A stretch of 33,034 bases of DNA, taken from contig JAAYLK010000043.1 of assembly GCA_012521895.1 (NCBI GenBank), forward strand, positions 1-33,034. The letters run 5' to 3'. The translations under genes and the position numbers were made by a program. The notes beneath the pieces were generated by a model. The model saw only the letters and a list, made by a program, of their open reading frames with translations. It had not been told where the DNA came from and made no database searches. The DNA comes from Clostridiales bacterium. GTDB lineage: Bacteria > Bacillota > Clostridia > Christensenellales > Aristaeellaceae. Shown in pieces: positions 1,916 through 19,650 of this stretch; positions within the stretch are counted from its first letter, which is position 1; each line of letters begins with the position of its first letter.

Positions 1916-3556
1916 ATGCGGGGAACCAAACGCTGGATTGGCCTGTTGGTGGCCATCGTGATGACCCTGGGCCTGCTGCCTGCCCTGGCGGCGGACGCAA
2001 CACCCTACTACAAAACCCTGGACCCCAATGTCAACGGTTCACTGGACATCATGGTCTGGTCCGGCGACAGCATCTACCATGAAGACCTGGGCAAGAAAGA
2101 CTGGAAGCCCGAGGACATCACCTCCCAGAACGTGGCCGCCGTCTACGCCATGGCCAAGGCCTTCAACGCGATGTATCCCAATGTCAAGGTGAACCTGTGG
2201 GCCAAGATTGACGACCCGCACGGCAACAACACCTCCTGGCAGCAGGAAATGGAAAACTTCAAGGCCGAGCACGGCAAATACCCGGACATCTACGCCTCCA
2301 CCGACCTGGTGGGCGATGTCACCAAGGGCCTGGTGGCCGACCTGTCCGCCTTCCAGAATGACCCCCTCTACCAGACCTTCAACCCCGCCATCATGAACAT
2401 GATGAACTACTATGGTTTCCAGGGTGGCCTGCCGCAGTTCATGCAGCCCTGGGGCGTCTGGGTCAACAAGGAACTGGCCGAGAACAACAACATCGACGTG
2501 CCCGACCCGGACTGGGACATCGACGACTACACCGCGATTGCCACCGCCGGCGACAACAAGACCTTCTGGGGCGCCATGGACACCCCCTTGTCCTTCATCA
2601 TGACCGGCAGCGATGACATGGCCTATTCCATGAGCCACTACAAAGGCGAAGGCGACCGCGTGAACCTGGCCAGCGAACAGGTGGCCAACCTCCTGGCTTA
2701 CCTGCCCCAGTGGGCCGCCAGCGCCGTCTGGCCGCAAAACGGCCTGGGCAATGTGCCCACGGAAATCATGGATGACGGCTGGTGGTGGGGCTTCCGCTTC
2801 TTCTGCCGCAACTACGTCCTGACCCTGGACGGCGATCCCTGGATGCTGGCTGCCGCCACCGGCGGCAAGGACGAGGCGGGCAACTGGGTGGTCAACGCCG
2901 TTGAAAGCGCCGACTGGGACATCTATCCCCGCCCCGCCACCCCCTACCGCGGCAACACCGTGGGCCTTGTGATTGACCCCATGGCCGTGCACAACTACGC
3001 CATGGACGACAACAACCCCGCCTGGAGCGAGGAAGAGCTGGCCAAATTCTCCCTGGCCTATGCCTTTAGCTCCTTCTGGGCCGGCTCAACCGAGGCCATG
3101 CAGGCCCGCGCCGACCAGCAGTTCTCCAACGCCGGCGCCCTGCGCAGCGCCTTGAACGACTCCTTCCCCCTGGTGACGGGCGACGCCTTCCAGACGCAGA
3201 TGGACATCTGGTATGCCACCCCCAGCCACCAGCGCTATGCCGACAAGGACAAGATGCCCGGCTTCCAGTACGTGCTGGAGCTGTGGGAGAAGGGCGAGAT
3301 GTGGGACATCTCCGACAAGACCTATCCCTTCTACGTCCAGGTGGATGGCACCCAGACCGCCAACCTCTATGAGTGGCTCAACATCGCCAACGCCGAAGTG
3401 GCGGGCGCGGGCACCACGGACGCCAACTGGCTGGACACCGTCAAGTCCAAGCTGGCCGACTGGAACCGCAATGTCAACAACCGCTTTGTGCAGGCTGAGA
3501 CCGAGCTGAAGAACGGCCTGACGCGCTACTACGGCTTCACCGACGCGGACTTCTAA
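1916..3556 (+). CDS. Secreted sugar ABC transporter solute-binding protein
   Basis: This 546-residue protein has a signal peptide (residues 1-25, cleavage after PALA) followed by a family 1 extracellular solute-binding fold (SBP_bac_1). The fold is recognisable from the early beta strand LDIMVWSG, the AKAFNAMYPNVKVNL helix-strand and the D-(I/V)-Y-A segment after a proline. It is rich in Trp, Tyr and Asp, as expected of an oligosaccharide binder. The ATG follows AAGGAGG by nine bases. It is the first and probably most highly expressed gene of the operon. There is no lipobox cysteine, which is unusual for a Gram-positive binding protein. The partner permeases are most likely the pairs downstream. 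A beta-glucan oligosaccharide ligand is inferred from the GH16 and phosphorylase genes. Confidence 0.88.
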   Translation: MRGTKRWIGLLVAIVMTLGLLPALAADATPYYKTLDPNVNGSLDIMVWSGDSIYHEDLGKKDWKPEDITSQNVAAVYAMAKAFNAMYPNVKVNLWAKIDDPHGNNTSWQQEMENFKAEHGKYPDIYASTDLVGDVTKGLVADLSAFQNDPLYQTFNPAIMNMMNYYGFQGGLPQFMQPWGVWVNKELAENNNIDVPDPDWDIDDYTAIATAGDNKTFWGAMDTPLSFIMTGSDDMAYSMSHYKGEGDRVNLASEQVANLLAYLPQWAASAVWPQNGLGNVPTEIMDDGWWWGFRFFCRNYVLTLDGDPWMLAAATGGKDEAGNWVVNAVESADWDIYPRPATPYRGNTVGLVIDPMAVHNYAMDDNNPAWSEEELAKFSLAYAFSSFWAGSTEAMQARADQQFSNAGALRSALNDSFPLVTGDAFQTQMDIWYATPSHQRYADKDKMPGFQYVLELWEKGEMWDISDKTYPFYVQVDGTQTANLYEWLNIANAEVAGAGTTDANWLDTVKSKLADWNRNVNNRFVQAETELKNGLTRYYGFTDADF

Positions 3557-3642: not shown

Positions 3643-6549
3643 ATGAAGAAGGCCCTGCTATGGCTGATCGTCATCGCCCTCATAGCGGGCGCCTTTTTTC
3701 TGTGGCCCAAGGCCGCCGCACCCGTCCCGGCGCGGCCGGAGGCGAGCAAGGTGCAAGCCGCCGCCGGCTTGCTGCAATCCTCCCTCACCTTGCGGGAAAC
3801 CTTCTATGCCGACCTGGACATCCCGGACGCCGCCGGCGCGCACACGGCTAGCGCCCAGCCTAACAGCACGGAGGCGCTCAACTACCGCGACAGCGCCCGC
3901 TACCTGCTAAGCGTGCCGGAAGCAGGCTGGTACAGCCTGACGCTGGCCTACCAGCCCCGCAGCCAGACGCTGTCGGACTTCATCATCGCCCTCACCATCA
4001 ACGGCCAGGCGGCCTATTCCGAGATGAACAACCTGCTGCTGCCCCTGTACTGGCGGGATGAGACCAAGGATTTTCCGCTGGACAGCTACGGCGACCAGAG
4101 CGTGCCCGCGCAAATCCGGATGGATGGCATAAGGAAGGAAGCCCTCAAAGGCAGCCTGCGCAGCACGGCCGGTCCCCTGCGCTTTCCGCTTCAGGCCGGG
4201 GAGAACCTGGTAGAAATCACCAACATCTCAAACGACGGCCTGTGGCTGGGCGAGCTGACCGCGCAAACGCTTCAGGAAACGCCGCGCTACGCGGACTATT
4301 CCCAGCGGCACATGGGGCAGAAGGAAGGCGGTCTGATCGCGGTCAACGCGATTGACTACACCGAAAAAAACTCCTCCCAAGTGCTGCTGCTGTCGGAAGA
4401 GAACCCGGCCATGCACCCCCAGGACCCGACCAGCAAGCTGCTGAACATCCTGCAGTTCACCCAGCCGGGCAGCCAGGCCGTCTTCCGGGTGGAAGCGCCG
4501 GAGGACGGGCTGTACAGCCTGCGCCTGCGGATGAAGAACAGGCGGCAGGACCTCAACGCCTACATCGGGCTGTCCATTGACGGCGAGCTGCCCTTTCTGG
4601 AGGCCGCCGCCTACGCCCTGCCCGACACCGGGGAAGCCTGGGTGAACCACACCCTGGCCGGACCGGACGGCACGCCCTACCGGTTTTATTTATCCAAGGG
4701 CAGCCACAGCCTGGGACTGAGCCTTGAGATGGAGCCCCTGATGCGCACTTGGCGCCTGGCCAGGTTATTAAGCGAACACATCACCCGCCTGGCGCTGGAC
4801 ATCACCAAGGTGGCGGGGCCGGAGGCCGACCGCCAGCGCACCTGGCGCATGACCCGCGTGATGCCCGAGATCCCGGACTACCTGGCTGCCTATCAGACCC
4901 TGATGGACGAGATGCGCTATGAAAGCTACCAGCATGTCTCCGCGGAGTCCGCGGCCCTGCTGGCCGACCTGGACCGCGCGGGCCAGTTTTTGGACCAGGT
5001 GGCCGAGTATCCGGACGAGATCGCCCTGTACCTGGAGAGCCTGACCGGGCGGGACAACTCCATGCTCTCGGCGCTGACCACCTTTGCCTCGGCTCTGAGC
5101 CAGAACGAGCTGAGCCTGGACATGCTCTACCTGGGGCAGGGGGACATCCCGCCCGCGGACGCGGGGCTCATCCGCAAGCTGTCAAACGGCATCGCAAGGC
5201 TGAACGCCTCCTTTTCAAACCGCAAGTACCGCCCCGCCGGCATCCCGGAAGGCACCCTGGACATCTGGGTCAACCGGGCGCTGACGCATGTGGACGTGCT
5301 GCAAAAGATGGCGGACACCGAGTTTACCAAGAAGACCGGCATCCCGGTCAAGGTGTCCGCGATGCCCGACGCCGGCAAGCTCACCCTGTCCGCAGCCGCG
5401 GGCAGCGCGCCGGATGTGGCGATGGGCCTGCTGTCCTACATGCCCTTTGACCTGGCCAGCCGCGGCGCCCTCTATGACCTGACACAGTTTGAGGATTTCT
5501 GGCAGGTGGCCGGCCGCTTCGCCCCGGGCGCCATGGTGCCCTATCTGTTCAACGACGGCGTATACGCCATGCCCGAGACCATGGATTTCAACGCCCTGGT
5601 CTATCGCCGGGACATTTTTGAGGGCCTGGGCTTTGCGGTGCCCGACACCTGGGACGAGGTAATAGGCCTGCTGCCGCAGTTGCAGCGCTACGGGATGAAC
5701 TTCTACCACAACATCGCCACCGGCGTGGGCTACAAGTGGTTTTACCAGACCACGCCCTTCATCTACCAGCACGGCGGCAGCCTGTACCAGAGCGACGGCC
5801 TGCGCACCGCCATTGACCAGCCCGAGGCGGTCGCGGGCATCCAGGCGCTGGGCAACCTGTTTTTGGCCTATTCCCTGGACCGCCAGGTCAATTCCTTCTT
5901 CAACTCCTTCCGCTACTCGGTGCTGCCCATTGGCATCATGGACGCCACGGAATACATCCTTCTTAAAAACGGCGCGCCGGAGTTGCAGGGCCGCTGGGCG
6001 CTGGCCCCCTACCCGGGCACCGTGGATGAACACGGCGACATCCAGCGCTGGTATGTCTCCAACGGCCAGGGCGCCCTGATTTTCGGCGATACCGACATGG
6101 CCGAAGAATCCTGGGAATTCCTCAAGTGGTGGACCCAGGCGGACACCCAGGTACGCTACGGCCACACCCTGACCTCCACCTACGGCGACGCCTTCCTCTG
6201 GCTGTCGGCCAATTTGACCGCCCTCAAGGACGCGCCCATTGACCGCTCGGACAAGGATGTCATCCTGGGGATGGCGCCCTGGCTGCGGGACGTGCCGCGC
6301 TCTCCCGGGCAGTACATGGTGGAGCGCTCCATCTCCGACATCTGGAACAACATGATTGCCCGCGGCGTCTCCGCCCAGGTGGCGGCGGATGAGAAGGTGA
6401 TCGCCGTCAACCGCGAAATCCGCAAGAAGCTGCAGGAGCTTGGCTTCATGGATCAGGAAGGCAATTTAGTGAAGCCCTATGTGGTGCGGGACGTGGACTG
6501 GATCGCGGCGCAGATTGCCCAGCACAAGGAGGCCGGCCATGACGACTAA
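3643..6549 (+). CDS. Giant membrane-anchored fusion: carbohydrate-binding-like domains plus solute-binding domain
   Basis: This 968-residue protein starts with a hydrophobic segment (about residues 5-22, [15 protein letters not shown]) that may be a signal peptide or an uncleaved anchor. Two beta-rich modules follow, each with a phrase of the type [15 protein letters not shown] or [16 protein letters not shown] (about 60-215 and 255-375), which resemble CBM35/CBM6-like domains. A helical linker (about 375-535) leads to a complete family 1 solute-binding domain (about 540-930) beginning GTLDIWVN and containing WEFLKWWTQ. Family 1 binding proteins are usually about 400-550 residues, so the N-terminal half is an addition. 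The frame is open further upstream, but GGAAGGGA before the ATG at 3643 supports this start. The likely role is to hold long glucan chains at the cell surface and present them to the permeases; the role is inferred, the architecture is seen. Confidence 0.82.
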
Positions 6550-7480
6550 GCCACACCGCCTGTCAAAGCGCGAAGAGAAGGCCCGCCTCAAACGGGACGC
6601 CGGCGCCTACGCCCTGCTGGTGCCCTATGCCCTGCCCTTCATCCTGTTCATCCTGATGCCGGTTGTGATGGCGATGGGCCTGTCCTTCACCTATTTTGAT
6701 GTCATCAACCCACCCAGCTTCACCGGCTTCCTCAACTACATCACCCTGTTCACCCAGGACACAGTCTTTTTGAAGAACGTCCTGCCCAACACCTTCCTCT
6801 ATGCCCTGGTGGTGGGCCCGGGCGGCTATGTGCTGTCCTTCCTGATCGCCTGGATGCTGACACAATTGCCCAAGGGCCCGCGCACCGTGCTGGCCCTGGC
6901 GGTGTACACTCCCTCCATGCTGGGCTCGGTCTTTATCGGCGTGGTCTGGCGCGCCATCTTCTCCGGCGACCAGCGCGGCATTGTTAACTACCTGCTGATG
7001 GAGCTGGGCGTGATTGACCAGCCGCTGCAATTTTTATTAACCCCCAACCACTTCATGGGCATCATGATCCTGGTGTCCCTCTGGTCGGCCATGGGCATCG
7101 GCTTTCTGGCGATGATTTCGGGCATCCTCAACATCAACCAGGAGCTGTACGAGGCCGCCTATGTCGACGGCATGCGCAACCGCTTCCAGGAAATCATCTA
7201 CATCACCGTGCCCTCGATGAAGCCTCAGATGCTGTTTGGCGCGGTGATGGCCATCGTCAACGCCTTCAACATGGGCTGGATTGGCGTCACCCTGTCCGGC
7301 GCCAACCCGACGCCGGAATACTCCGGCCAGCTCATCACCAACCACATCGACGACTTTGGCTTCATCCGCTATGAGATGGGCTACGCGGCGGCGCTGTCGG
7401 TGGTGCTGCTGATGGTGGTCTACCTGTTCAACCGCCTGGCCCACCGCTTCTTTGGGGAACGCGAGGAGGTGGAATCATGA
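6539..7480 (+). CDS. Sugar ABC transporter permease, pair 1, LplB/MalF type
   Basis: This 313-residue protein has six predicted membrane helices and the cytoplasmic EAA loop ([12 protein letters not shown]...ITVPSMKP, from about residue 204) that contacts the ATPase. The helix [21 protein letters not shown] and the phrase [11 protein letters not shown] are typical of the first permease of carbohydrate ABC importers. The start is set by AAGGAGG at 6526-6532 before the ATG, giving an 11-base overlap with the preceding gene; the longer open frame is not used. It should pair with the next gene to form the membrane channel. No ATPase gene accompanies it. Confidence 0.9.
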
Positions 7481-8382
7481 GCAAACAACTGACTAAGCCC
7501 AAAAAAGCCAAAAAAGGAGGCTACCAGGGCTCCCGCATCAACCCCACACGCTTCTCCCTGGGCCAGCTCAAGTTCTATTTCATCCTCATCCCCCTGGCGA
7601 TGTTCATGATCATCCCGGTGGTGATGATCATCAACCGGGCCTTCATGCCCCTGGGCGAGCTGTTCGCCTTCCCGCCCCGGGTGATTGTGAAGAACCCCAC
7701 CATCAACAACTTCCGCGACCTGCTGTCGCTGTCGGGCTCCACCGGCGTGCCGATGTCCCGCTACCTGCTCAACTCGGTTGTGATCACGCTGCTGACGGTG
7801 CTGATGAACCTGGTGATCTCGGTGACCGGCGCCTATGCCCTGAGCAAAAAGCGCTTCCGGGGCAAGGAGAAGCTGTTTGCCATCAACCAGCTGGCGCTGA
7901 TGTTTGTGCCCACCGCGGTGGCCGTGCCGCGCTACCTGGTCATCATGAACTCCGGCATGTTCAACACCTTCTGGGCGCAGATCATGCCGCTGTTGGCCAT
8001 GCCCGTGGTGTTGTTTCTGGTGAAGCAGTTTGTGGACCAGATCCCAGACGCCCTGATCGAGGCCGCGGTGGTGGACGGCGCCAATGATTTGACCATCATC
8101 CGCCGCATCATCATCCCCCTGACACGCCCGGCCCTGGCCACCGCGGTGGTATTGACCTTCCAGGCGGTCTGGGGCTCGGTGGAGGCCTCCAACAACTTCA
8201 TCACCGATGACACGCTGCGCACCCTGGCCTTCTACCTTAACTCCATCTCCACCAACAACGCGGTGGCGGGCGCGGGCATGGTGGCCGCGGCCTCTGTCAT
8301 CCTGTTTTTGCCCAATTTGATTATCTTTATCGTGATGCAGTCCCAGGTGATGAACACCATGAGCCATTCGGGCATCAAATGA
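7477..8382 (+). CDS. Sugar ABC transporter permease, pair 1, YtcP/MalG type
   Basis: This 301-residue permease has six membrane helices and a canonical EAA loop ([24 protein letters not shown], from about residue 194), as in the second permease of carbohydrate importers (MalG/YtcP class). The N-terminus carries a lysine-rich cytoplasmic tail ([13 protein letters not shown]). Its ATG overlaps the previous stop as ATGA, behind GAGGAGGTGG, so the two subunits are translationally coupled and probably made in equal amounts. It is followed after 13 bases by the NHL/TPR/Yip1 gene. Confidence 0.9.
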
Positions 8383-8395
8383 AAGGAGGCCGCGC

Positions 8396-10414
8396 GTGAA
8401 GAAAACCCTCGCTCTTTTGCTGGTGCTGCTGGCCTCCTTGCAGGCCACAAGCGCCTTTGCCGTCCAGGCCACCAGCTTTACCTACACGGTGGATGACACG
8501 ATGACCCTGGTGCGCACCCAGGACGCCTACCTGCCCGACAAGACCATCTCCAGCCTGGGGCTCAATAGCCCCGAGGACCTGTTTTTTGATGACAGCGGCC
8601 TGCTGTACATCGCCGACACCGGCAACAAACGGGTGCTGGTGTACGACAGCCTGCGCGAGCAGGTCGTGAAGGAGCTGGCCCACCCGGACTTCAGGACGCC
8701 GCGCGGCTTGTATGTGACCGAAGAAGGCCAACTGTATGTGGCCGACGCCGGCGCCAAGGCCGTCTTCCGCTTTGACGGCGACCTGGCATTGGACCACACC
8801 TTCTTAAAACCCGACACCGCCGTCTTTGCCGACACCAACTACGAACCCATGAAGGTGGCGGTGGACAAGGCCGGCAGCATCTACATCATCGGCGAGGGCG
8901 TTTATTCCGGCGTCATCCAACTAGCGCCCACCGGCGAGTTCCTGGGCTATTTCACCGTCAACCGCTCCCGCCCCTCCATCCAGCAGATCATCCAGCGCGC
9001 CCTTTTCACAAGGGAGCAGCGGGCCAACCTGGTGGATGTAGCGCCGGGCACCTTCTCCAACGTTTTTGTGGACAAGCAGGGCATCGTCTACACCACCTCC
9101 ATGGGCCTTGAGCTGGACGGCCTCAAAAAGCACGCCACCAACGGCGTCAACATGTTCGTGTCCCCGGCCTGGGGCGAGGAGGACATGCGCGATGTGACGG
9201 TGAATGGGGAGGGTGTCATCTTCGTGTCCTCGCAGCGTGGCAAGGTCACCATTTACTCCAAGGCCGGGGAGCTGGTGTTTTCCTTTGGCTCCAACGTGGC
9301 CGACTTGGACGTCTCCGGATTGTATGGCTCCCTGCCCTCCATCGCGGTCTCCCCAAATGGTGACATCTGGACGGTGGACGGGATGAAGGGCTACCTGCAG
9401 TCCTACAAGCCCACCGTGTATGCGAACACCGTTTATGAGGCCATGACCCTGTATGAGCAGGGGCGGTACAAGGATTCCCTGGAACTGTGGAACCAGGCGC
9501 TGCGGCTGAACCAGATGTCGGTGCTGGCGCACAACGGCGTGGGCAACGCCCTGTTCCATGAGGGGCAGTATGAGCAGTCCATGGGCCACTTTGAGGTGGC
9601 CGGCAACCGCCATTACTACTCCGAGGCCTTCTGGGAAGTGCGCAACGACTGGCTGCAAAAGACCCTGCCCCTGGTCGCCATCGCGCTGATCGCCCTTGTG
9701 CTGCTGGCCCTCCTCATCAGGCGCCTGGATAAAAAGAGGCATATCCGCGGCCTGTTGCGCGGAATGTGGGCAAGGCTGGCCGCCGCGCCCTTTGTGGGCA
9801 ATGTATTGTTCGCACTGACCACCGCCCGACACCCCCTGGACGGCTACTATGACCTGCGCGTCAAAAAGCGCGGCAGCCTGCCCGCGGCCACCTTCCTCTA
9901 TGCCGCCTTCTTTGTCACCTTCATCCTCTACCAGACCTCCAAGGGGTTCATCTACCAGTTCGTGCGCGTGCAGGACATCGACGTGGCCGGGCTGTCCGCG
10001 GGCTTCTTCGTGCTGCTGGGCATGTTCATTTTCTGCAACTGGCTGGTGTCCTCCATCAATGACGGGGACGGCACGCTCAAGCAGATTTACATGATTCCCG
10101 CCTATGCCCTGCTGCCGCTGCTTTTCGCCATGCTCATCAACCTGGCCCTGTCCTACGGGGTGACCTATTCCGAGTCCTTCATCCTCTCCCTGGTGGAGGG
10201 CGTGGGCATCCTGTGGTCCCTGGCGACGCTGTTTTTGGGCCTGATGACGGTGCATGATTACTCCTTCAAGGAAACGGTCAAATCCCTGCTGATGACCGTG
10301 GTGTTCATCATCATCGCCGCCCTGGTGGCGCTGATCTTCATCGTGATGGTGGAGCGCCTCTACCAGTTCCTGGGCACAATCTTCCAGGAGGTGAAACGCA
10401 ATGTCTACGCTTAA
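8396..10414 (+). CDS. NHL-propeller/TPR/Yip1 fusion membrane protein of unknown function
   Basis: This 672-residue protein starts at a GTG preceded by AAAGGAGG. Residues 1-22 are a signal peptide (ATSAFA). NHL-type beta-propeller repeats follow at about 45-335, with phrases such as SPEDLFFDDSGLLYIADTGN, GQLYVADAG and NGDIWTVDG. A TPR-like helical pair (about 343-405, ALRLNQMSVLAHNGVGNALF) comes next, then a membrane helix (about 424-441) and a C-terminal multi-helix domain of Yip1 type (about 465-660). The predicted layout puts the propeller and TPR outside the cell and the Yip1 domain in the membrane. Similar genes occur beside DUF5696 and sugar permease genes in other Firmicutes, but no function is established. 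It could organise the import complex or sense bound glycan; both are guesses. Confidence 0.8.
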   Translation: MKKTLALLLVLLASLQATSAFAVQATSFTYTVDDTMTLVRTQDAYLPDKTISSLGLNSPEDLFFDDSGLLYIADTGNKRVLVYDSLREQVVKELAHPDFRTPRGLYVTEEGQLYVADAGAKAVFRFDGDLALDHTFLKPDTAVFADTNYEPMKVAVDKAGSIYIIGEGVYSGVIQLAPTGEFLGYFTVNRSRPSIQQIIQRALFTREQRANLVDVAPGTFSNVFVDKQGIVYTTSMGLELDGLKKHATNGVNMFVSPAWGEEDMRDVTVNGEGVIFVSSQRGKVTIYSKAGELVFSFGSNVADLDVSGLYGSLPSIAVSPNGDIWTVDGMKGYLQSYKPTVYANTVYEAMTLYEQGRYKDSLELWNQALRLNQMSVLAHNGVGNALFHEGQYEQSMGHFEVAGNRHYYSEAFWEVRNDWLQKTLPLVAIALIALVLLALLIRRLDKKRHIRGLLRGMWARLAAAPFVGNVLFALTTARHPLDGYYDLRVKKRGSLPAATFLYAAFFVTFILYQTSKGFIYQFVRVQDIDVAGLSAGFFVLLGMFIFCNWLVSSINDGDGTLKQIYMIPAYALLPLLFAMLINLALSYGVTYSESFILSLVEGVGILWSLATLFLGLMTVHDYSFKETVKSLLMTVVFIIIAALVALIFIVMVERLYQFLGTIFQEVKRNVYA

Positions 10415-12773
10415 GCGCCTGCTGGCCCTGTGCCTGGTGTGCCTGTTTGCCCTGCCCGGGCTGGCGGAGGACTATGCCCCCACCAACCGCGACACCCGCT
10501 ATGAACCCGTCACAATGGACATCCCGGAACCCGATTTTGATGGCTTTGAGCCGCTGTATGAAACCGCCTCCGCGCAGTACTACTGGCGGGAGGACCGGGA
10601 CGTCATCGCCGTGTATGACAAGGAGAGCGGCTACACCTGGAAGACGGGCCTTGACACGGGCTTCCCCGCGGACATCAAGGACCAGGTAAAGCAGGCCCAG
10701 ACAGACGAGGAGAAAATCAAGGCGGCGCAGCCCCTGGAAGCCCAGCTCAACGCCCGCTACATCGGCATCGCCAACTCCCTGCTGACGGCTGAATACTATG
10801 AGGCGGAGACCATCAAGTTCATCTCCTCCGCCAGCCGCGAGGGCGCCAGCAGCGCCCTGGTGAAGCTGGACCAGCCCGGCCGGTTTGCCCTGGATGTGTC
10901 CTTTGAGGAAATCGACCTGCAGGTGAAGGTGAACATCGCCTTTGAAGACAAGGGCATTTCCTACCACATCCCCTTTGACGGCCTCAAGGGCGCGGGCCTT
11001 TCCCGCCTGGCCGCCCTGTGGATCACCCCCTTCCTGGGCGCCTCCGGCGGCGTCTCCCAGGTGTTTGACCCGCAGGCCATGGACTATGGCCCGGCCCAGC
11101 CCAAGGCCATGACCCCGGGCTATGTGCTGGTGCCCGACGGCCCGGGCGCCCTGATCCGCTTTCGGGACAACACGGTCACCTTCAAGGAGTATGTGGGGGA
11201 GGTCTACGGGGATGATTACGCCACCGCCACCTACTACTACAATGTGCTGACGGATGCCGTCAGCCTCAAGCAGCCGGTGATGCCGGTGTTTGGGATCGCC
11301 CACGGGCATGAGCAGGCCGCCTTTGTGGCCTTCGCCCGGCAGGGCGCCGAGCACATGAGCATCGTGGCCAGGCCCGAGGAAAACCTGCGCATCAAGTACA
11401 CCTGGGCCCACCCGCGCTTTGAGTACAACGCCACCTACTACAAGGTGTACAACCGCTACGGCGAGGGCTTCTTCTCCCTCATGAGCGCCCCCCTCAATTA
11501 TGACATTCAGATGACCTACCGCTTCCTGTCCGGGGCGGAGGCCACCTGGGCCGGCATGGCCCGGGCCTACCGGGCCCACCTGCGCTCAGAGGGCAGCCTG
11601 ACGGAACTTGAGGCCTCCGGCGACGACATCCCCATCCGGCTGGACTTCATCCTGTCTGACATCAAAAAAGGCCTGATCGGCCCGGAGCAGGTGGTGGTGA
11701 CCACCGCGCGGGACGCCGGCGAGATGCTGACCAAATTGAACCAGGATGGAATCAGGCGAATTTCCTCCGGCCTGATCGGCTGGCAGGACGGCGCACAGAC
11801 CCTGGCCCAGCCCGGCAGCCTGCGCTTTTACCGCGGCACCGGCGATGAGCAGGCCTTCAAAACCCTGGCCAGGGAGCAGGATGAACTGGGCACCCAGGTG
11901 GAGCTGGCGCGGGACTTTGCCAGGGTCAATGAAAAGATGGTGCGCTACAACGGCAACGCCGTGCAGCACCTGAACACCTGGTTTGTGAACACCGATTACT
12001 CCTGGCGCTACCCCAAGGCCCCGGTCACCCAGTATTCCCTGGCGCGGCCGGACGTGGCCGCGAAATGGCTGCAAAACGTGGCAAAGCGCGCGGGGCAAAA
12101 CGGCCTGGGCCTGATGGTGACAGGCCTGCCCGGGCTGCTGGTGAGCACGCACCGCTATGAAGGCCCGGAAGTCACCCGCCTGCAGGCCAAGGACCTGTTA
12201 AGGGACGCCTTCCAGACAGCCGGGCAGGACGCCAGCTTGTCTTTGGACCAGCCCAACCTCTACCTCTGGAACAGCACCCGCCGCTACCTGCAAGCGCCGG
12301 TGACCGGCTCCCAGCATGTGTTTGAAAGCGACAACGTGCCCTTCCTTCAAATGGTGCTGCAGGGCAGCATGGACGTGCACGGGCCCTACAGCAACTTCTC
12401 CTTCTACGCGCGGGAGGACATCCTGCGCATGATTGACTACCACACCTACCCCAGCTTTATCCTGTCCAGGCAGCCCGCCCACCTGCTGGTGAGCACGATG
12501 TCCGCCGACTTGTACTCCACCGAGTTTTCCCAGTATGAGCAATTGGTGAAGGACACCTACGACCAGGTGAACGCCGCGCTGGGACAGCTTGTGGGCTGGC
12601 AGTGGCAGGACAGGACGATGCTGCAGCAAGGCGTGGCGCAAAACACCTACGCGCGTGATGGGCAAATCAAACACCTCATCATCAACTACACCCACAACGC
12701 GGTGGACATCAATGGCACAAGCGTCCCGGCCCAAAACTGGACGCTTGAGGAAAGAGGCGCGCATGGCCAATAA
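10401..12773 (+). CDS. Secreted DUF5696-type protein, possibly glycosidase-like
   Basis: This is a 790-residue exported protein with a signal peptide (about 1-22, ending ALPGLA). Overall sequence and context fit the DUF5696 family: an N-terminal part with YYWREDRDVIAVYDKESGYTW, a beta-rich middle (PGALIRF, GEVYGDDY), then a segment from about residue 406 (IPIRLDFILSDIKKG) that could be a barrel-like domain. The near-terminal phrase LIINYTHNAVDINGT (about 757) resembles the closing beta-sandwich of several glycosidases. No catalytic pair can be named with certainty. The gene overlaps its predecessor by 14 bases behind AGGAGGTGA, so expression is coupled to the NHL/Yip1 protein. A role in handling extracellular glycan is inferred from the operon. 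The cysteines within the signal peptide are not in a valid lipobox. Confidence 0.75.
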   Translation: MSTLKRLLALCLVCLFALPGLAEDYAPTNRDTRYEPVTMDIPEPDFDGFEPLYETASAQYYWREDRDVIAVYDKESGYTWKTGLDTGFPADIKDQVKQAQTDEEKIKAAQPLEAQLNARYIGIANSLLTAEYYEAETIKFISSASREGASSALVKLDQPGRFALDVSFEEIDLQVKVNIAFEDKGISYHIPFDGLKGAGLSRLAALWITPFLGASGGVSQVFDPQAMDYGPAQPKAMTPGYVLVPDGPGALIRFRDNTVTFKEYVGEVYGDDYATATYYYNVLTDAVSLKQPVMPVFGIAHGHEQAAFVAFARQGAEHMSIVARPEENLRIKYTWAHPRFEYNATYYKVYNRYGEGFFSLMSAPLNYDIQMTYRFLSGAEATWAGMARAYRAHLRSEGSLTELEASGDDIPIRLDFILSDIKKGLIGPEQVVVTTARDAGEMLTKLNQDGIRRISSGLIGWQDGAQTLAQPGSLRFYRGTGDEQAFKTLAREQDELGTQVELARDFARVNEKMVRYNGNAVQHLNTWFVNTDYSWRYPKAPVTQYSLARPDVAAKWLQNVAKRAGQNGLGLMVTGLPGLLVSTHRYEGPEVTRLQAKDLLRDAFQTAGQDASLSLDQPNLYLWNSTRRYLQAPVTGSQHVFESDNVPFLQMVLQGSMDVHGPYSNFSFYAREDILRMIDYHTYPSFILSRQPAHLLVSTMSADLYSTEFSQYEQLVKDTYDQVNAALGQLVGWQWQDRTMLQQGVAQNTYARDGQIKHLIINYTHNAVDINGTSVPAQNWTLEERGAHGQ

Positions 12774-13650
12774 AAACACCAGGCGCAATGAAAACCTGAA
12801 GGGCTATGCCTTCATGGCGCCCTGGATTCTGGGCTTTCTGGCCTTCACCCTCTTCCCCTTCCTGGCCACCTTGTACCTGAGCTTCTCCAGCGTCCGCGCC
12901 ACCATCCTGGGCTATGAAATCACCTGGACGGGCCTGGAGAACTACCACACCGCCTTCTTGAAAAACACCGAGTTTGTGCCCGCCCTGGGCGAGTTTTTGT
13001 CCATGGTGCTGCCCAACACCTTTGTCATCCTGGTGGTGTCCTTCATCATCGCCTACCTGTTGGGGCGCATCAAGAAAGGCAGGGGGCTGTTCCGCACCAT
13101 CTACTTCCTGCCAGTCATCATCATGTCCGGGCCCGTGATGAGCCAGATTCTCTCCTCCTCCACCGCCATCACCGGCGCCCAGCGCCCGGCGGATGTGACG
13201 CAGCTGTTCATCTACCAGATCATCAACAACTACTCAAGGCCCCTGGCCTCTGTGTTCACCGGGGTGTTTGAAAACATCAGCACCATCTTGTGGTTCACCG
13301 GCATCCCCATCGTGCTGTTCATCAACGCCCTGCAAAAAATCAACCCCAGCATGTACGAGGCCGCGCGCATTGACGCCGCCAACGAGTGGCAAATCCTGTG
13401 GAAGATCACCCTGCCGCAGCTGAAGCCGGTCGCCCAGGTGGCCGCCATCTTCACCATCGTGCAGCTGGGCATCTCTGACCACAGCACGGTGTACACCTTG
13501 ATCAACACCGCGACGGGCAACCTGTCCGGCGGCCTGGGCTATGCCGCCACCTACGCCTGGGTATACAGCCTGCTGGTGATGGCGGTGATTGGGCTGGCCT
13601 TCCTGATTCTGCGCCAGCCCAAGGGAGGAGGCAGGACCTATGAAGAATAA
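12763..13650 (+). CDS. Sugar ABC transporter permease, pair 2, LplB/MalF type
   Basis: This is a 295-residue, six-helix permease opening with a short charged tail and the typical helix GYAFMAPWILGFLAFTLFPF. The EAA loop is present (EAARIDAANEWQILWKITLPQLKP, from about residue 198), with Ala where the family usually has Gly in the D-G-A motif. The start at 12763 is supported by GAGGAAAGAGG and gives an 11-base overlap with the DUF5696 gene; an open frame far upstream is only a shadow within that gene. It is the first subunit of a second permease pair in the same operon, so the locus may serve two ligands or chain lengths. Confidence 0.9.
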   Translation: MANKNTRRNENLKGYAFMAPWILGFLAFTLFPFLATLYLSFSSVRATILGYEITWTGLENYHTAFLKNTEFVPALGEFLSMVLPNTFVILVVSFIIAYLLGRIKKGRGLFRTIYFLPVIIMSGPVMSQILSSSTAITGAQRPADVTQLFIYQIINNYSRPLASVFTGVFENISTILWFTGIPIVLFINALQKINPSMYEAARIDAANEWQILWKITLPQLKPVAQVAAIFTIVQLGISDHSTVYTLINTATGNLSGGLGYAATYAWVYSLLVMAVIGLAFLILRQPKGGGRTYEE

Positions 13651-14566
13651 GCAAGGCATCGGCAATGACGCGCGCAAGGCCTGGGGCGTCCTGTCCAAGG
13701 CCGCCATCTACGCCCTGCTGATTGTGGTCAGCTACCTGTTTTTGGAGCCCATTGTCACCATCATCTCCAAGACCTTCATGAACGCCCAGGACATCGTGGA
13801 CCCCGCCGTGCAGTGGCTGCCCCGCAGCGTATCCCTGACCAACCTGGAGGTGGCCTCCAAGGTGCTGCGCCTGCCCCATTCGCTGCTCAACTCCATCGGT
13901 TTTTCTTCATTGCTGGCCTTTTGCCAAGTGGTGGTGTCGGCGCTGACGGGCTATGCCTTCTCCCGCTACCAGTTCCGCTTTAAAAATTTCTGGTTCATGA
14001 TGCTGCTGCTGGCCTTCATCCTGCCCCTGCCGGTGCTGATGATTCCCCGGCTGATGATGTTCACCACCGCCCAGGAAGCGATGAAAATCAGCCTGATTGG
14101 CACGCCCATTCCCCAGGTGCTGATGGCGGTGCTGGGCCAGGGCACCTATTCCACCGTGCTCATTCTGATTTTCACCAACTTCTTCAACATGATCCCCCGG
14201 GTGCTGGACGAGGCGGCGATGATTGACGGCGCCAACAGCGCCCAGGTCTTCTTCCACGTGACGGTGCGGCTATCCATCAGCACCATTTTGGTGGTCTTTC
14301 TGTTAAGCTTTGTGTGGAACTGGAATGAGACCTATGTGACGGCCACCCTGGTGCGCAGCAGCATCGAGCTGCTGCCCCACAAGCTCAACGCCTTTGACAG
14401 CCAGTTTGACTCCCTGGTGTCCGCCCAGGGAGGCGGCTTCCGCCTCAACGAGGCCTACAAGATGGCAGCCACCCTGATTGCCATCCTGCCCCTGGTGGTG
14501 CTGTACATCTTTGTGCAGAAGAAGTTTATCCAGGGCATCGAAAACGCGGGCATTACAGGAGAGTGA
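13640..14566 (+). CDS. Sugar ABC transporter permease, pair 2, MalG type
   Basis: This 308-residue protein has six membrane helices and the MalG-class pattern, including LNSIGFSSLLAFCQVVVSALTGYAFSRYQF and a C-terminal LYIFVQKKFIQGI. The EAA loop starts normally (EAAMIDGANSAQVFF, from about residue 190) but its second half reads VTVRLS, where most members have an I-x-L-P segment, so the conserved proline of the ATPase-contact loop is missing. It overlaps the preceding permease by 11 bases, behind GGGAGGAGG. It forms a transporter with that permease and an ATPase encoded elsewhere. Confidence 0.88.
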   Translation: MKNKQGIGNDARKAWGVLSKAAIYALLIVVSYLFLEPIVTIISKTFMNAQDIVDPAVQWLPRSVSLTNLEVASKVLRLPHSLLNSIGFSSLLAFCQVVVSALTGYAFSRYQFRFKNFWFMMLLLAFILPLPVLMIPRLMMFTTAQEAMKISLIGTPIPQVLMAVLGQGTYSTVLILIFTNFFNMIPRVLDEAAMIDGANSAQVFFHVTVRLSISTILVVFLLSFVWNWNETYVTATLVRSSIELLPHKLNAFDSQFDSLVSAQGGGFRLNEAYKMAATLIAILPLVVLYIFVQKKFIQGIENAGITGE

Positions 14567-14567
14567 C

Positions 14568-15521
14568 ATGAAACAATTCAAATTCCGCTTCAGCATTTTG
14601 ACCGCAGCAATCTTGTTGTTGATTGTTTTTACAGCGCAAGGAGGAAGTGAAAGCCCCATGATGGATCTGGACAGACTGCACACAGGCAGCCAGGTGTCTG
14701 ACGCCTATGTCGACCCGGACAAGCTGGCAAAAGGCACCTATGAGTATGACCGCTCACAGCTGCAATACGAACTGGTTTGGGCGGATGAGTTTGACACGGA
14801 CGGGCCGGTGGACCCCGCGAAATGGCATTTTGAGACAGGCGGCAGCGGCTGGGGCAACAACGAGCCGCAGTACTACACCAGGGGCGAAAACGCCTGGGTG
14901 GAGGACAACCACCTGGTGATTGAGGTGCGCAAGGAAGCCCGGGGCACCAACCCCTATACCTCTTCACGCATGGTGACCCGCGGCAGGGCGGATTGGCTGT
15001 ACGGCAAGTTTGAAATACGCGCCAAGCTGCCCACGGGCCTGGGCACCTGGCCTGCGCTGTGGATGATGCCCACCCATTCCACCTATGGCGGCTGGCCGCG
15101 CTCGGGCGAGATTGACATCATGGAGCACGTGGGCTATGACCAGGACCGGGTGCATGCCTCCGTCCACACAGGCGCTTACAACCATGTGATGGGCACCCAC
15201 AAGACCGCCACCATCCAGGTGCCCGGCGCCAGCGAGGATTTCCACACCTACACACTGGAATGGCTGCCCGACCAGGTCATCATCAGCGTGGACGGCAAGG
15301 AATACTACACCTACAACCCCGCGCGCTATGAGGCGGATTTCAATTACATGCAGTGGCCCTTTGACAAGCCCTTCTACCTGATTTTCAACATCGCCTTTGG
15401 CGGCAACTGGGGCGGGGCGCGGGGCGTGGACGACAGCGTGCTGCCGCAAAAAATGCTGGTGGACTATGTGCGTGTCTACCAAAGCCCGGAGATTACAAAC
15501 CTTGTAAAGGAGCAGCCATGA
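14568..15521 (+). CDS. Secreted GH16 endo-beta-1,3-glucanase (laminarinase type)
   Basis: This 317-residue protein has an N-terminal hydrophobic signal (about residues 8-23) and a single GH16 catalytic domain (about 65-312). The catalytic motif is EIDIME at 181-186: E181 as nucleophile, D183 as helper and E186 as acid/base. The extra residue between D183 and E186 is the beta-bulge form found in laminarinases and related endo-1,3-glucanases, not in lichenases, whose motif is one residue shorter. Other GH16 marks are WADEFDTDG near the start, YGKFEIRAKLPTGLGTWPALWM and FYLIFNIAFGGNWGG near the end. It should cut beta-1,3 or mixed glucans outside the cell. It starts one base after the permease stop behind AGGAGAG, with no lipobox or wall-sorting signal, so it may be released. 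Confidence 0.92.
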   Translation: MKQFKFRFSILTAAILLLIVFTAQGGSESPMMDLDRLHTGSQVSDAYVDPDKLAKGTYEYDRSQLQYELVWADEFDTDGPVDPAKWHFETGGSGWGNNEPQYYTRGENAWVEDNHLVIEVRKEARGTNPYTSSRMVTRGRADWLYGKFEIRAKLPTGLGTWPALWMMPTHSTYGGWPRSGEIDIMEHVGYDQDRVHASVHTGAYNHVMGTHKTATIQVPGASEDFHTYTLEWLPDQVIISVDGKEYYTYNPARYEADFNYMQWPFDKPFYLIFNIAFGGNWGGARGVDDSVLPQKMLVDYVRVYQSPEITNLVKEQP

Positions 15522-18500
15522 GCCGCTTTTCAACCCTGACAGATGGCCGCGTGCGGATGAGGGACTATGACCAGGCGCCCGGCTTTTCCAGTTTCCTGCC
15601 CGGCCTGGCCGGCCCCCTGGGCACCCCCATCTGGGCCTTCACCTGCAACCGGGGCCAGGGCATCTCCAGCTTTGGCATCAACCACAAGGGCGATTCCATC
15701 CTGCCCTTCCAGCCGGCCAACCTGGCCTATGAAGACACGCCAACCCTGGGCTTTCGCACCTTTTTGCTGGTGGACGGGCAGTTTCTTGAGCCGTTTTCAC
15801 CGCTGAGCACTGGCGCGCAGCGCAGCATGACGCAAGGCGCTGGCAGCCTGGAATTGATTGAGGAAAACGCCGCCTTCGGCCTGGCTGTGCACGTGCACTA
15901 CACCACCCTGCCCGGGGAGCCCATCGGCGCGCTGCTGCGCGGGGTGACAATCAACAACACCGGGGAGAAGGCGGTCCATATCCAGCTGCTGGACGGTCTG
16001 CCGCGCGTCCTGCCCTATGGCCTGCAGCTGGGCCAGTACAAGGACATGGGCAACCTGTTCAAGTCCTGGGCCCAGGTGCAGGAGGCGGAAAACGGCGCCA
16101 GGCAGTACAACCTGCGCTCCTCCACCGGGGATTCTGAGCGCGTCAGCGAGGTGGCCGGCAGCTTTTTCTATGCCGCCAAGGCCAGCGGCCAGCCCCTGGG
16201 CACCGCTTACGACCCCGCCCTGGTCTTTGGCGCGGACGCCCCGCTGCTCCTCCCCCAGGCCTTCATCAACCGGGGCTTGGCAGGCATCAACAAGGCAATT
16301 CAGCACGGGGAAAACCGCCTGGCCTGCGCCTTCGCGATGGCGGACATCACGCTGAAACCTGGTGAATCCTATGCCCTGGACAGCCTGATTGGCTTCACGC
16401 CTTCCACAGAGCTGCTGAACCAATTGATGCCCCGGTTCCTGCAAAATGGGTACGCGGACAAAAAACGCGAAGAGAGCGCCCGCGTGGTCAGCAGCATGCT
16501 GGAGGATGTGAACACCGCCACGGCCAATCAGCAGTTTGACGCCTACATCGCCCAGTGCTACCTGGACAACCTCCTGCGCGGCGGCTACCCCAGGCTGATT
16601 GGCGGCAAGGTGGTGCATCTGTTCAGCCGCAAGCACGGGGACCCGGAGCGCGACTACAACTGGTTTGTGACCTCCGGGGAGCCTTATTCCCAGGGCAACG
16701 GCAACTTCCGCGACGTCTGCCAGAACCGCCGCATGGACGTCAGCCTGCACCCTGAAGTGGGCGACTTCAACGTGCACAACTTCTACTCCCTCATCCAGAT
16801 GGACGGCTACAACCCGCTGGAAATCCGCCCCTCGCGCTTTGTGCTGAAAGCGGGTTTGGATGCAGGCGGCGCGCTGAAGGGCCTGGTCGAAGGAGACTTG
16901 CAACCGCTTGTAAACTTGCTCAAGGACAGCTTCACCCTCGGCCAGGTGGTGCTGGCGCTACGCCAGCACGGCCTCAAGACCCCCAAAGGGGTGGAAGCGG
17001 TGGTGGAAGCGCTGCTGCAAAACGCCGACCAGCAGCTGCACGCCGGCTTTGGCGAGGGCTGTTGGAGCGACCACTGGACCTACCTGCTGGATTTGGTGGA
17101 GGACTATTTGAAGGTCTATCCCGACAAGCAGGATGATTTGCTGTGTGGGCGGGCGGACTACCGCTTCTTCCACAGCGGCGCCAGGGTGCGGCCACGAACG
17201 GAGACCTGCCAACTGACCGACAAGGGCGTCAGGCGGTATGACGCGCTGGACGCCAAAAACGTGGTGGGCCACACCCGCTGGCTGAAGGATGCGCAAGGGC
17301 AGGCAGTCACCACCAATTTGCTGGGCAAGATGCTGGTGCTGGCCGCCACCAAGGCCGCCAGCCTGGACCCGGAGGGCCTGGGCATCTCCATGGATGGCGG
17401 CCGCCCCGGCTGGAACGACGCCATGAACGGCCTGCCGGGCCTGTTTGGCTCGGGCATGGCGGAGGCCCTGGAGCTGCGCCGCCACCTGCGTTTCCTGTTA
17501 AACCTGAAACATGGGCAAACCACCGTGCCGGAAGAACTGGCGGCCTTTGTCGCTGGTCTTCAAAAAGCGCTCAAGGAAGAGGATGCTTTCAAGCGCTGGG
17601 ACAGCGCCACAACGCTGCTGGAAGGCTACCGGGCCACGACCTGGGAGCACACAGGCGGCGAGGCTGTCACCCTCAGCCTTGAGGACATCCGCCCCTTCCT
17701 GCAAACGGCGATGCAAAGGGTGGAAGAGGGCATCCGCCAGGCCTTCGCCATTGGCCAGGGCATCATGCCCACCTATTTCACTTACGAAGCCACGGCGTAC
17801 GAACCGCTTATGGATGCAACCGCGCCCCGGCTGTCAGCCTCCGGGTTGCCGCTGGTCAGGGTCACAGCCTTTGAACGCCGGGACGTTCCCCACTTCCTGG
17901 AAGGCCCCGCCCGCCAGCTGGCCTGCGCCGGCTTGAAGGCGGAGGAAGCCAAAAAGACGGCGGAAGCCGTCAGGAACAGTGATTTGTTTGACCCGCACTT
18001 AGGGATGTATCTGACCAGCGTGCCGCTGAACCACATGAGCATGGAGCTGGGCCGCATCCGCGCCTTCACCCCCGGGTGGCTGGAGCGGGAGAGCGTGTTC
18101 CTGCACATGGCGTACAAGTACCTGCTGGGCCTGCTGGAAAGCGGGCAGCAGGACGCCTTCTGGGCGGCGGCCAGGACCGGCCTGGTGCCCTTCATGGACG
18201 CGGACACCTATGGCCGCAGCACGCTGGAGAACTCCAGCTTCATCGCCTCCTCCCGCAACCCCGACCCCGCCATGTGGGGGCGCGGTTTTGTGGCCAGGCT
18301 GTCCGGCTCCACGGCGGAGATGCTGTCCATCTGGCAAAAACTGTTCTGGGGCGAGGGCGGCATGGAGCTGGTGAATGGTCGGCCTGCCTTCCGCTTTGAC
18401 CCGCGTTTGCCCCACTTCCTGCTGGATGATGAGGGCCGGGCGGCCTTCACACTGTTTTCAACATGCCAGGTGGTGGCTCACGGCAACAAGGGCTGGAGCA

Positions 18501-18643
18501 ACAGCAGCGTCAAATCCCTTGTGTACCGGATGGGCGGCAAGGCGTATACTGTCCAGGGTTCTGTACTGCCTGACGGCGAAGCCCTGCGGCAGGGCGACAT
18601 TGACAAAGTGGACATCTACCTGTGTGAGGGGGAAGCTGATTGA
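15518..18643 (+). CDS. Cytoplasmic beta-oligoglucan phosphorylase (GH94/GH149/GH161-like)
   Basis: This 1041-residue protein lacks a signal peptide and has the layout of inverting glucoside phosphorylases: an N-terminal beta-sandwich (about 1-300), a helical linker and an (alpha/alpha)6 barrel. Within the barrel, YSQGNGNFRDVCQNRR (390-405) corresponds to the sugar-binding RGWRDLWQD region of GH94. GRPGWNDAMNG (628-638) corresponds to the segment carrying the catalytic acid, so D634 is the likely acid. GH94 cellobiose phosphorylases are near 800 residues. The greater length and the pairing with a laminarinase favour a beta-1,3-oligoglucan phosphorylase like GH149 or GH161. The reaction would be oligoglucan plus phosphate giving glucose-1-phosphate. 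It is coupled to the GH16 gene by an ATGA overlap behind AAAGGAG. Family assignment is inferred. Confidence 0.8.
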   Translation: MSRFSTLTDGRVRMRDYDQAPGFSSFLPGLAGPLGTPIWAFTCNRGQGISSFGINHKGDSILPFQPANLAYEDTPTLGFRTFLLVDGQFLEPFSPLSTGAQRSMTQGAGSLELIEENAAFGLAVHVHYTTLPGEPIGALLRGVTINNTGEKAVHIQLLDGLPRVLPYGLQLGQYKDMGNLFKSWAQVQEAENGARQYNLRSSTGDSERVSEVAGSFFYAAKASGQPLGTAYDPALVFGADAPLLLPQAFINRGLAGINKAIQHGENRLACAFAMADITLKPGESYALDSLIGFTPSTELLNQLMPRFLQNGYADKKREESARVVSSMLEDVNTATANQQFDAYIAQCYLDNLLRGGYPRLIGGKVVHLFSRKHGDPERDYNWFVTSGEPYSQGNGNFRDVCQNRRMDVSLHPEVGDFNVHNFYSLIQMDGYNPLEIRPSRFVLKAGLDAGGALKGLVEGDLQPLVNLLKDSFTLGQVVLALRQHGLKTPKGVEAVVEALLQNADQQLHAGFGEGCWSDHWTYLLDLVEDYLKVYPDKQDDLLCGRADYRFFHSGARVRPRTETCQLTDKGVRRYDALDAKNVVGHTRWLKDAQGQAVTTNLLGKMLVLAATKAASLDPEGLGISMDGGRPGWNDAMNGLPGLFGSGMAEALELRRHLRFLLNLKHGQTTVPEELAAFVAGLQKALKEEDAFKRWDSATTLLEGYRATTWEHTGGEAVTLSLEDIRPFLQTAMQRVEEGIRQAFAIGQGIMPTYFTYEATAYEPLMDATAPRLSASGLPLVRVTAFERRDVPHFLEGPARQLACAGLKAEEAKKTAEAVRNSDLFDPHLGMYLTSVPLNHMSMELGRIRAFTPGWLERESVFLHMAYKYLLGLLESGQQDAFWAAARTGLVPFMDADTYGRSTLENSSFIASSRNPDPAMWGRGFVARLSGSTAEMLSIWQKLFWGEGGMELVNGRPAFRFDPRLPHFLLDDEGRAAFTLFSTCQVVAHGNKGWSNSSVKSLVYRMGGKAYTVQGSVLPDGEALRQGDIDKVDIYLCEGEAD

Positions 18644-19650
18644 CAACCATCAAGGACGTGGCGCGGGAAGCCGATGTGGCCATCTCCACCGTCAGCAAGG
18701 TGCTCAATGACGCGGGCAACGTGCGCCCGCATCTGAAAGCCAGGGTGCTGGAAGCGGTGGACAAGCTGGGCTACATCCCCAACACCGCGGCGCGGTCCCT
18801 CAAAAGCCGGCGCAAGGACACCCTGGGCCTCTTCCTGTTTTCCATCCAGGGCGAGTTTTTCACCACCCTGTCCCAGGCCATCCACAGGCTGTGCCAGCAA
18901 TCGGGCTACATGCTCAACATCTTTGTGGGCAACCAGAACACCAGCGAGGAAATCCACAGCCGCATCCTGGCTTCAGGCGTGGCTGGCGCCATCGTCTTCA
19001 ACGAAACCCTGGCCCCGCAGAGCATCCAACGCATCACCGCCCACGGCATCCCCCTGGTGTTCATCGACCGCGAATACAAGGCGCTCAACGCGTCCAGCAT
19101 CACCATTGACAACGTCGCGGGCGCCAGCCTGGCGGTGAATTACTTGATCCGCCAGGGCCACCGCAAGATCGCCTACCTGCATGGCAACCTGTCCTTTGAC
19201 AACGCCCAGCGCTTTTCCGCCTACCAGGACATCATGAAGAAAAACAGGCTGCCCATCCCCGAGGAATGGCTGCTGCGCGGCTTTTATGAAGAGGTGCTGG
19301 CCTACGGCGAGGTGCGCAAAGCGGTGCTCAGCGGCCTGCCCCTGCCCGAGGCCTTCTTTTGCGCCAATGACGAGATGGCCTGGGGCACCATCCGCGCCCT
19401 GCGTGACCTGGGCATCGCCGTGCCCGGGCAGGTGAGCGTGGTGGGCTTTGACGACGTCACCCGGGCGGAGCACTACTCCCCCGCGCTGACCACCGTGCAC
19501 AGCCCCATCGCCGAGGTGGGCACCCAGAGCGTAAAGGAGCTGCTGCGTTTGCTGTCTGACGGCACGCCCAAGGAGGGCCGCATCCAGCGCCTGGCGCCCA
19601 GCCTGATTACAAGGGAGAGCTGCACGCTGCGGCTGGATGCCAGGGTGTAG
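18640..19650 (+). CDS. LacI-family transcriptional regulator
   Basis: This 336-residue protein has the LacI N-terminal helix-turn-helix (residues 2-23, TIKDVAREADVAISTVSKVL), a hinge helix region ending TAARSLKSRR, and a periplasmic-binding-like effector domain with FFCANDEMAWG and SVVGFDD near the end. It starts at a TTG that overlaps the stop of the phosphorylase gene (TTGA), behind a GAGGGGG run; no ATG is available at the proper position. As the last gene of the operon it probably represses the promoter near 1835 until an oligosaccharide binds. Possible operators are the repeats at 1664 and 1817. The effector is unknown but is likely a short beta-glucan sugar. Confidence 0.93.
   Translation: MTTIKDVAREADVAISTVSKVLNDAGNVRPHLKARVLEAVDKLGYIPNTAARSLKSRRKDTLGLFLFSIQGEFFTTLSQAIHRLCQQSGYMLNIFVGNQNTSEEIHSRILASGVAGAIVFNETLAPQSIQRITAHGIPLVFIDREYKALNASSITIDNVAGASLAVNYLIRQGHRKIAYLHGNLSFDNAQRFSAYQDIMKKNRLPIPEEWLLRGFYEEVLAYGEVRKAVLSGLPLPEAFFCANDEMAWGTIRALRDLGIAVPGQVSVVGFDDVTRAEHYSPALTTVHSPIAEVGTQSVKELLRLLSDGTPKEGRIQRLAPSLITRESCTLRLDARV

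What the first reader, a model, noticed from the sequence alone, without database searches (positions are those of the whole stretch)
8396..10414. NHL propeller, TPR and Yip1 membrane domain fused in one exported protein
Seen: signal peptide, propeller-type repeats, TPR-like pair, single helix, then a Yip1-type multi-helix domain. Yip1 domains are best known from eukaryotic vesicle traffic, and the bacterial versions have no settled role. An outside propeller on a Yip1 base, inside a transporter operon, suggests a scaffold or a glycan sensor that couples binding to the permeases.
Basis: partly seen in the sequence, partly recalled or inferred. Interest (0 to 1): 0.6.

Follow-up and report, generated by a model that had tools for sequence, protein, structure and literature searches.

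The report
Membrane scaffold of sugar-uptake operons
A bacterial membrane protein with an outside propeller and a Yip1 base is, wherever we looked, encoded inside the same sugar-uptake gene set, which makes it the probable scaffold of an undescribed multi-part sugar importer and gives a concrete context for a protein family whose bacterial role was unknown.

Summary
Window 8396-10414 (+) encodes a 672-aa exported protein: signal sequence, NHL propeller (29-339), TPR pair (341-403), conserved juxtamembrane helix, one TM, K/R-rich cytoplasmic linker and a five-TM Yip1 domain. Pfam cut-offs are passed, and the AlphaFold model (pLDDT 84) matches NHL propellers (Z 31.9). In every locus with enough flank the next gene is DUF5696 (120/120), followed by permeases C and D (113/113). 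In 101/111 loci SBP2, permease A and permease B lie directly upstream. Hosts are Bacillota, Mycoplasmatota, Spirochaetota and Thermotogota. In 27 loci the protein is two adjacent genes cut in the cytoplasmic linker; all 20 N-terminal halves inspected end in a TM plus a basic tail, which supports the topology. DUF5696 folds like GH129 glycosidases. DUF5696 and SBP2 carry export signals but mostly no lipobox or further TM, so this protein is the likely membrane base. Neighbouring enzymes vary (beta-1,3-glucan, pectin, arabinan), so the cassette is a generic glycan importer. Best reading: a membrane scaffold docking SBP2 and DUF5696 on the permeases (inferred). Glycan sensing by the propeller is untested. 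No paper found describes this cassette.

The parts
8396..10414 (+). NHL-TPR-TM-Yip1 protein, 672 aa
8480..9412 (+). NHL propeller, residues 29-339, outside the cell
9416..9604 (+). TPR helices, residues 341-403
9608..9655 (+). juxtamembrane helix, residues 405-420 (YSxAFWExRN), the most conserved segment of the protein
   Evidence: mean entropy 1.19, 44% of columns at 80% or more; the start of the motif (Y[SG]xA[FYL]) is found in 19 of 20 split-form proteins
9647..9733 (+). single TM (TM0), residues 418-446, out to in
9722..9877 (+). basic cytoplasmic linker, residues 443-494; the place where the split forms are cut
9827..10333 (+). Yip1 domain (Pfam stretch, residues 478-646); five TMs spanning residues 492-664
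10401..12773 (+). DUF5696 protein: signal sequence, beta sandwich, TIM barrel, beta sandwich (GH129-like fold); overlaps the NHL-Yip1 gene by 14 nt
3643..6549 (+). SBP2: export signal, N-terminal region without a Pfam match, SBP_bac_1 at the C-terminus
6539..7480 (+). permease A (BPD_transp_1, EAA loop intact)
7477..8382 (+). permease B (BPD_transp_1, EAA loop intact)
12763..13650 (+). permease C (BPD_transp_1)
13640..14566 (+). permease D (BPD_transp_1)
1916..3556 (+). SBP1-like exported protein, present upstream in the beta-glucan type of cassette; no Pfam match
14568..15521 (+). GH16 glycosidase, substrate-specific neighbour
15518..18643 (+). divergent GH149-related, possibly GH161, beta-1,3-glucan phosphorylase
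   Evidence: 96 bits against a cut-off of 1150
18640..19650 (+). LacI-type regulator

Best explanation
The protein is the membrane-embedded scaffold subunit of a conserved multi-component carbohydrate ABC importer. Shown by computation: the outside propeller plus TPR is joined by one TM and a cytoplasmic linker to a five-TM Yip1 base, and the gene is coupled to DUF5696 and permeases C/D in every locus with room, usually also to SBP2 and permeases A/B. Inferred: the Yip1 base packs beside the permeases; the propeller, TPR and the conserved juxtamembrane helix form the outside platform that holds two exported partners mostly without an anchor of their own, SBP2 and the GH129-like DUF5696. Glycan caught or trimmed there is handed to the permeases, powered by a shared MsmX-type ATPase encoded elsewhere. 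Specificity comes from exchangeable SBPs and glycosidases, not from the scaffold.
For: Gene order: DUF5696 is next in 120/120 loci with room, DUF5696-permC-permD in 113/113, SBP2-permA-permB upstream in 101/111. Family searches: in 60 related genomes every Yip1 match over the cut-off lies next to a DUF5696 gene; in a 249-genome phylum sample at least 29 of 37 DUF5696 matches have Yip1 within 1.2 kb, the others including contig ends and unlisted rows, and four of those read afterwards do have it (L151-L154). Topology. Anchoring: DUF5696 (115 sequences) and SBP2 (110) mostly show an N-terminal hydrophobic signal, no further TM (one exception) and a lipobox in about 10%, while upstream SBP1 has one in 23/27. 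Distance matrices over 80 loci: propeller-TPR partial correlation is highest with SBP2 (0.32) and DUF5696 (0.31), Yip1 with DUF5696 (0.32). Fused and split forms alternate, at least 2 and by parsimony 6 changes. ATPase candidates elsewhere in the genome are 56% and 54% identical to the UgpC encoded next to the same cassette in Paenibacillus cellulosilyticus. Neighbour enzymes vary.
Against: No complex was modelled and no interaction measured. Conserved neighbourhood shows joint function, not contact. Partial correlations are modest and not corrected for tree shape. Signal sequences of SBP2 and DUF5696 might stay uncleaved and act as anchors. Diderm hosts (Treponema, Thermosipho) would not need an anchor.
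Confidence: 0.55

Rival explanations
1. Glycan sensor: the propeller binds a glycan or the loaded SBP and the Yip1 base passes the signal to the permeases or to a cytoplasmic partner.
For: Outside propeller, single TM and long conserved helix joined to a cytoplasmic linker; a review proposes a receptor role for prokaryotic Yip1 proteins (PMC6682643).
Against: The cytoplasmic linker is among the least conserved parts; no glycan site was identified; the same scaffold serves cassettes for very different glycans.
Confidence: 0.15
2. Yip1 is itself part of the translocation path or a channel, for example extending permeases C/D.
For: Yip1 clan proteins have been proposed as transporters or channels (PMC6682643); always encoded with permeases C/D.
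Against: All four permeases keep EAA coupling loops, so no extra path is needed; no ATPase-coupling loop was looked for in Yip1.
Confidence: 0.1
3. Assembly factor: the protein helps fold or insert the four permeases or DUF5696 and is not part of the working importer.
For: TPRs are typical docking modules (general knowledge); gene lies between the two permease pairs.
Against: An assembly factor would be expected to serve several transporters, yet each cassette has its own copy, up to 8-13 Yip1 matches in some genomes.
Confidence: 0.1
4. Enzyme platform: DUF5696 is an active glycosidase and the propeller protein holds it at the importer mouth, so that trimming and uptake are coupled; SBP2 is held otherwise.
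For: DUF5696 folds like GH129 enzymes, Z 27.5 over 580 residues; in the split clade an Asp sits at window position 575 in 22/27 sequences.
Against: In the fused group that position is Gly in 67/95, and no acidic residue at the barrel strand ends where catalysis is expected is kept throughout.
Confidence: 0.1

Closest known systems
Carbohydrate ABC importers of the MalFG/UgpAE (CUT1) type
   Same: SBP_bac_1 protein and BPD_transp_1 permease pairs with EAA loops; no ATPase gene in the window operon, as noted for GH161 clusters (PMC6484121)
   Different: two permease pairs, an SBP mostly without lipobox fused to a large N-terminal region, plus two accessory proteins (NHL-TPR-Yip1 and DUF5696) that I know of in no described CUT1 system
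Yip1 domain family (PF04893; eukaryotic YIPF, bacterial YIP1 family proteins)
   Same: five TMs, N-terminus of the domain in the cytoplasm (predicted), Pfam cut-off passed
   Different: preceded by an outside propeller, TPRs and an extra TM; tied to an ABC importer instead of vesicle traffic. The review read here states no function was reported for prokaryotic members (PMC6682643)
Yip1 proteins beside leaderless bacteriocin genes
   Same: Yip1 near ABC-type transport genes; role in immunity or transport only suggested (PMC11580447)
   Different: peptide export or immunity context; the passages read mention no NHL propeller or DUF5696
GH161/GH149 beta-1,3-glucan phosphorylase gene clusters
   Same: phosphorylase, GH16 and ABC permease genes in one locus (PMC6484121)
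   Different: that paper's text has no mention of Yip1; here the phosphorylase is only one of several enzyme types found beside the cassette
GH129 / GH101 glycosidases
   Same: DUF5696 overall fold, Z 27.5 to 5opq and 27.3 to 5wzr
   Different: 12-13% identity; catalytic acids apparently not kept in the window clade

Membership tests
Yip1 domain (PF04893) | Pfam gathering score | tested here: met
   57.7 against 28.6 bits
Yip1 domain (PF04893) | five TM segments in the domain | tested here: met
   five hydropathy peaks 492-664 averaged over 44 sequences; helices in the model; prediction only
Yip1 domain (PF04893) | domain N-terminus in the cytoplasm | tested here: met
   linker with 12.3 K+R per sequence; basic tails in 20/20 split forms; prediction only
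Yip1 domain (PF04893) | role in vesicle traffic or Rab binding (eukaryotic members) | not testable with these tools
   no such machinery is expected in bacteria
NHL propeller (PF01436) | repeat score and propeller fold | tested here: met
   53.1 against 20 bits; Z 31.9 to 6d69
TPR | repeat score over cut-off | tested here: met
   TPR_11 31 against 26.8, TPR_2 30.8 against 27 bits
CUT1-type carbohydrate ABC importer | permeases with EAA loop | tested here: met
   all four permeases, 106-113 sequences each; permease D is weakest at the final Pro, 69%
CUT1-type carbohydrate ABC importer | solute-binding protein | tested here: met
   SBP_bac_1 in SBP2, 73.7 bits
CUT1-type carbohydrate ABC importer | ATPase for the importer | tested here: inconclusive
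   no ATPase gene between 1916 and 19650; MsmX/UgpC-like candidates on contigs C93 and C110; a shared ATPase encoded elsewhere is common in Bacillota
GH129 (for DUF5696) | overall fold | tested here: met
   Z 27.5, rmsd 3.6 over 580 residues
GH129 (for DUF5696) | conserved catalytic acids | tested here: inconclusive
   position 575 is Asp in 22/27 split, Gly in 67/95 fused sequences; mapping to NagBb Asp435 rests on counting from a partial alignment
GH149 phosphorylase (window 15518-18643) | NCBIfam equivalog cut-off | tested here: not met
   96.4 against 1150 bits; membership of GH161 was not tested

The most novel reading that the evidence does not exclude
NHL-TPR-Yip1, DUF5696 and two permease pairs form one physical super-importer in which an outside pseudo-glycosidase and a fused SBP are held over the pore by a Yip1-based scaffold: a previously undescribed architecture of carbohydrate uptake, and a first assigned role for a bacterial Yip1 protein.
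Probability: 0.35. Interest if true: 0.8.

Novelty: new variant of a known kind. Interest (0 to 1): 0.62.

Why it matters
The role of prokaryotic Yip1 proteins is an open question (PMC6682643 states that no function had been reported). Here a Yip1 domain has an invariant gene context across several phyla, with named culturable hosts (for example Sutcliffiella horikoshii, Evansella vedderi, Paenibacillus cellulosilyticus, Butyrivibrio fibrisolvens), so the question becomes directly testable. If the scaffold reading holds, a common class of gut and soil glycan importers has at least two obligate subunits now annotated only as 'YIP1 family protein' and 'DUF5696 domain-containing protein'.

Tried and rejected
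Fusion as an assembly artefact: rejected, the same fusion recurs in 95 of the 122 loci on the tree and in a public record, and the split form has the same order. Chance neighbourhood: rejected by 120/120. A propeller enzyme such as a lyase or lactonase: not pursued; no invariant His is found in 44 homologues. Degenerate permeases C/D: rejected, EAA loops are largely kept. Solved structure of a Yip1 relative: a phmmer search with the Yip1 part found none at E up to 1; both structural searches of the whole model are filled by the propeller, so the Yip1 part is barely tested. GH129 sequences for direct mapping of catalytic residues: none found in 61 genomes and the controls did not ring. Literature searches for DUF5696 and for YIP1 with NHL or solute-binding terms gave nothing; only open-access papers are held. 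My first guess that NagBb Asp330 is the nucleophile was dropped after reading PMC5698469, which names Asp435 as one of the two catalytic residues. Searches were input errors, a wrongly formatted report.

Full report
What is there. The ORF at 8396-10414 (+) encodes 672 aa behind a strong ribosome-binding site. Pfam finds NHL, TPR and Yip1 over their cut-offs. The AlphaFold2 model (pLDDT 83.7) shows a propeller at 29-339, TPR helices at 341-403, a long helix running into the membrane at 405-448, and helices for five more TMs. The propeller matches solved NHL domains at Z 31.9. In 44 homologues the most conserved segment is not the propeller but the juxtamembrane helix 405-420.

Topology. An N-terminal signal precedes the propeller. 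The linker between TM0 and Yip1 carries 12.3 K+R per sequence, the loops of the Yip1 domain 0-1.4. In split relatives the N-terminal protein ends in a TM plus a short tail with 4-10 K+R in 20 of 20 cases. The propeller and TPR are therefore outside and the linker inside, by prediction.

A conserved cassette. A search of the own genome and 60 relatives, an 80-locus draw from named genomes, and a 249-genome phylum sample gave loci that were annotated by BLAST against the window's proteins. Tally (128 loci, a few of them near-identical, and most found by similarity to this protein): DUF5696 next in 120/120 with room, DUF5696-permC-permD in 113/113, SBP2-permA-permB upstream in 101/111. In four loci permease B has moved; in two the SBP2-permA-permB block follows instead of precedes; in three from pectin-type genomes no A/B pair is found nearby. 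The core is therefore NHL-TPR-Yip1, DUF5696, permease C and permease D. Searches that start from the Yip1 or DUF5696 family agree. Shorter or partial DUF5696 matches without the cassette also exist (for example G028 and G029). Public annotation shows the same order in Paenibacillus cellulosilyticus, with a UgpC ATPase gene beside it, and in Butyrivibrio fibrisolvens in the split form.

Fused and split. On a DUF5696 tree of 122 loci (95 fused, 27 split) the label changes six times by parsimony, at least twice on well-supported branches; some joins involve long branches. Split genes often overlap by 4 nt or 23-35 nt. Gene fission or fusion inside one unit is classic evidence of joint function.

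Partners. DUF5696 was modelled at pLDDT 91.8 and matches GH129 enzymes over its whole length (Z 27.5). In fused loci the position nearest the expected nucleophile is Gly in 67/95 (Gly in the window), in split loci Asp in 22/27. Window-type DUF5696 may thus be a non-catalytic binding protein, while the split clade may be active; this mapping is tentative. DUF5696 and SBP2 have export signals but mostly no lipobox and no further TM, unlike SBP1 (a regular-expression and hydropathy test with uncertain start codons). All four permeases keep EAA loops. Distance matrices over 80 loci group permA with permB (partial correlation 0.65), permC with permD (0.40), and the propeller-TPR part with SBP2 and DUF5696 (0.32, 0.31).

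Substrates. Neighbouring genes include GH16 and a divergent GH149-related phosphorylase here, GH106, pectate lyase and an apiosidase-like protein in genomes with many copies, GH43, GH3, GH35, arabinofuranosidases and galactarate/altronate dehydratase elsewhere. The scaffold is constant and the enzymes change.

Mechanism. Shown: architecture, predicted topology, gene association. Inferred: the Yip1 base sits by the permeases and the outside part holds SBP2 and DUF5696 over the pore. Sensor, channel, assembly-factor and enzyme-platform readings remain open and are listed as rivals.

Novelty. The papers consulted (PMC6484121, PMC6682643, PMC11580447, PMC10318527; searched for terms, not read in full) do not describe this cassette in the passages seen, and searches for DUF5696 found no paper. 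Only open-access literature was searched. The system is filed as a new variant of carbohydrate ABC importers.

Limits.

Noticed in passing
L009 (G000:C63) 7600-10518: A fourth cassette in the same genome looks decayed or mis-assembled: a 152-aa Yip1 remnant and a DUF5696 broken over two frames, between permease genes.
   Followed up: partly
genomes G099, G121, G141, G194, G224 (L154, L158, L159, L163, L164): Small genomes (2.2-3.0 Mb) with 8-13 Yip1 matches each, most in ORFs of about 700-790 aa, some beside pectin-degrading genes: a lineage-specific expansion of the cassette.
   Followed up: partly
DUF5696 alignment, window position 575: Mostly Asp in split loci, mostly Gly in fused loci: possible loss of glycosidase activity on one branch of the family.
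   Followed up: partly
window 15518-18643: Phosphorylase-like protein related to GH149 (96 bits) but far below the family cut-off; perhaps GH161 or a new family.
   Followed up: no
window 1916-3556: Exported SBP-like protein with no Pfam family; most relatives are lipoproteins, the window copy has no lipobox.
   Followed up: no
L089, L099, L102: The cassette also occurs in Treponema and Thermotogota, which have outer membranes.
   Followed up: no
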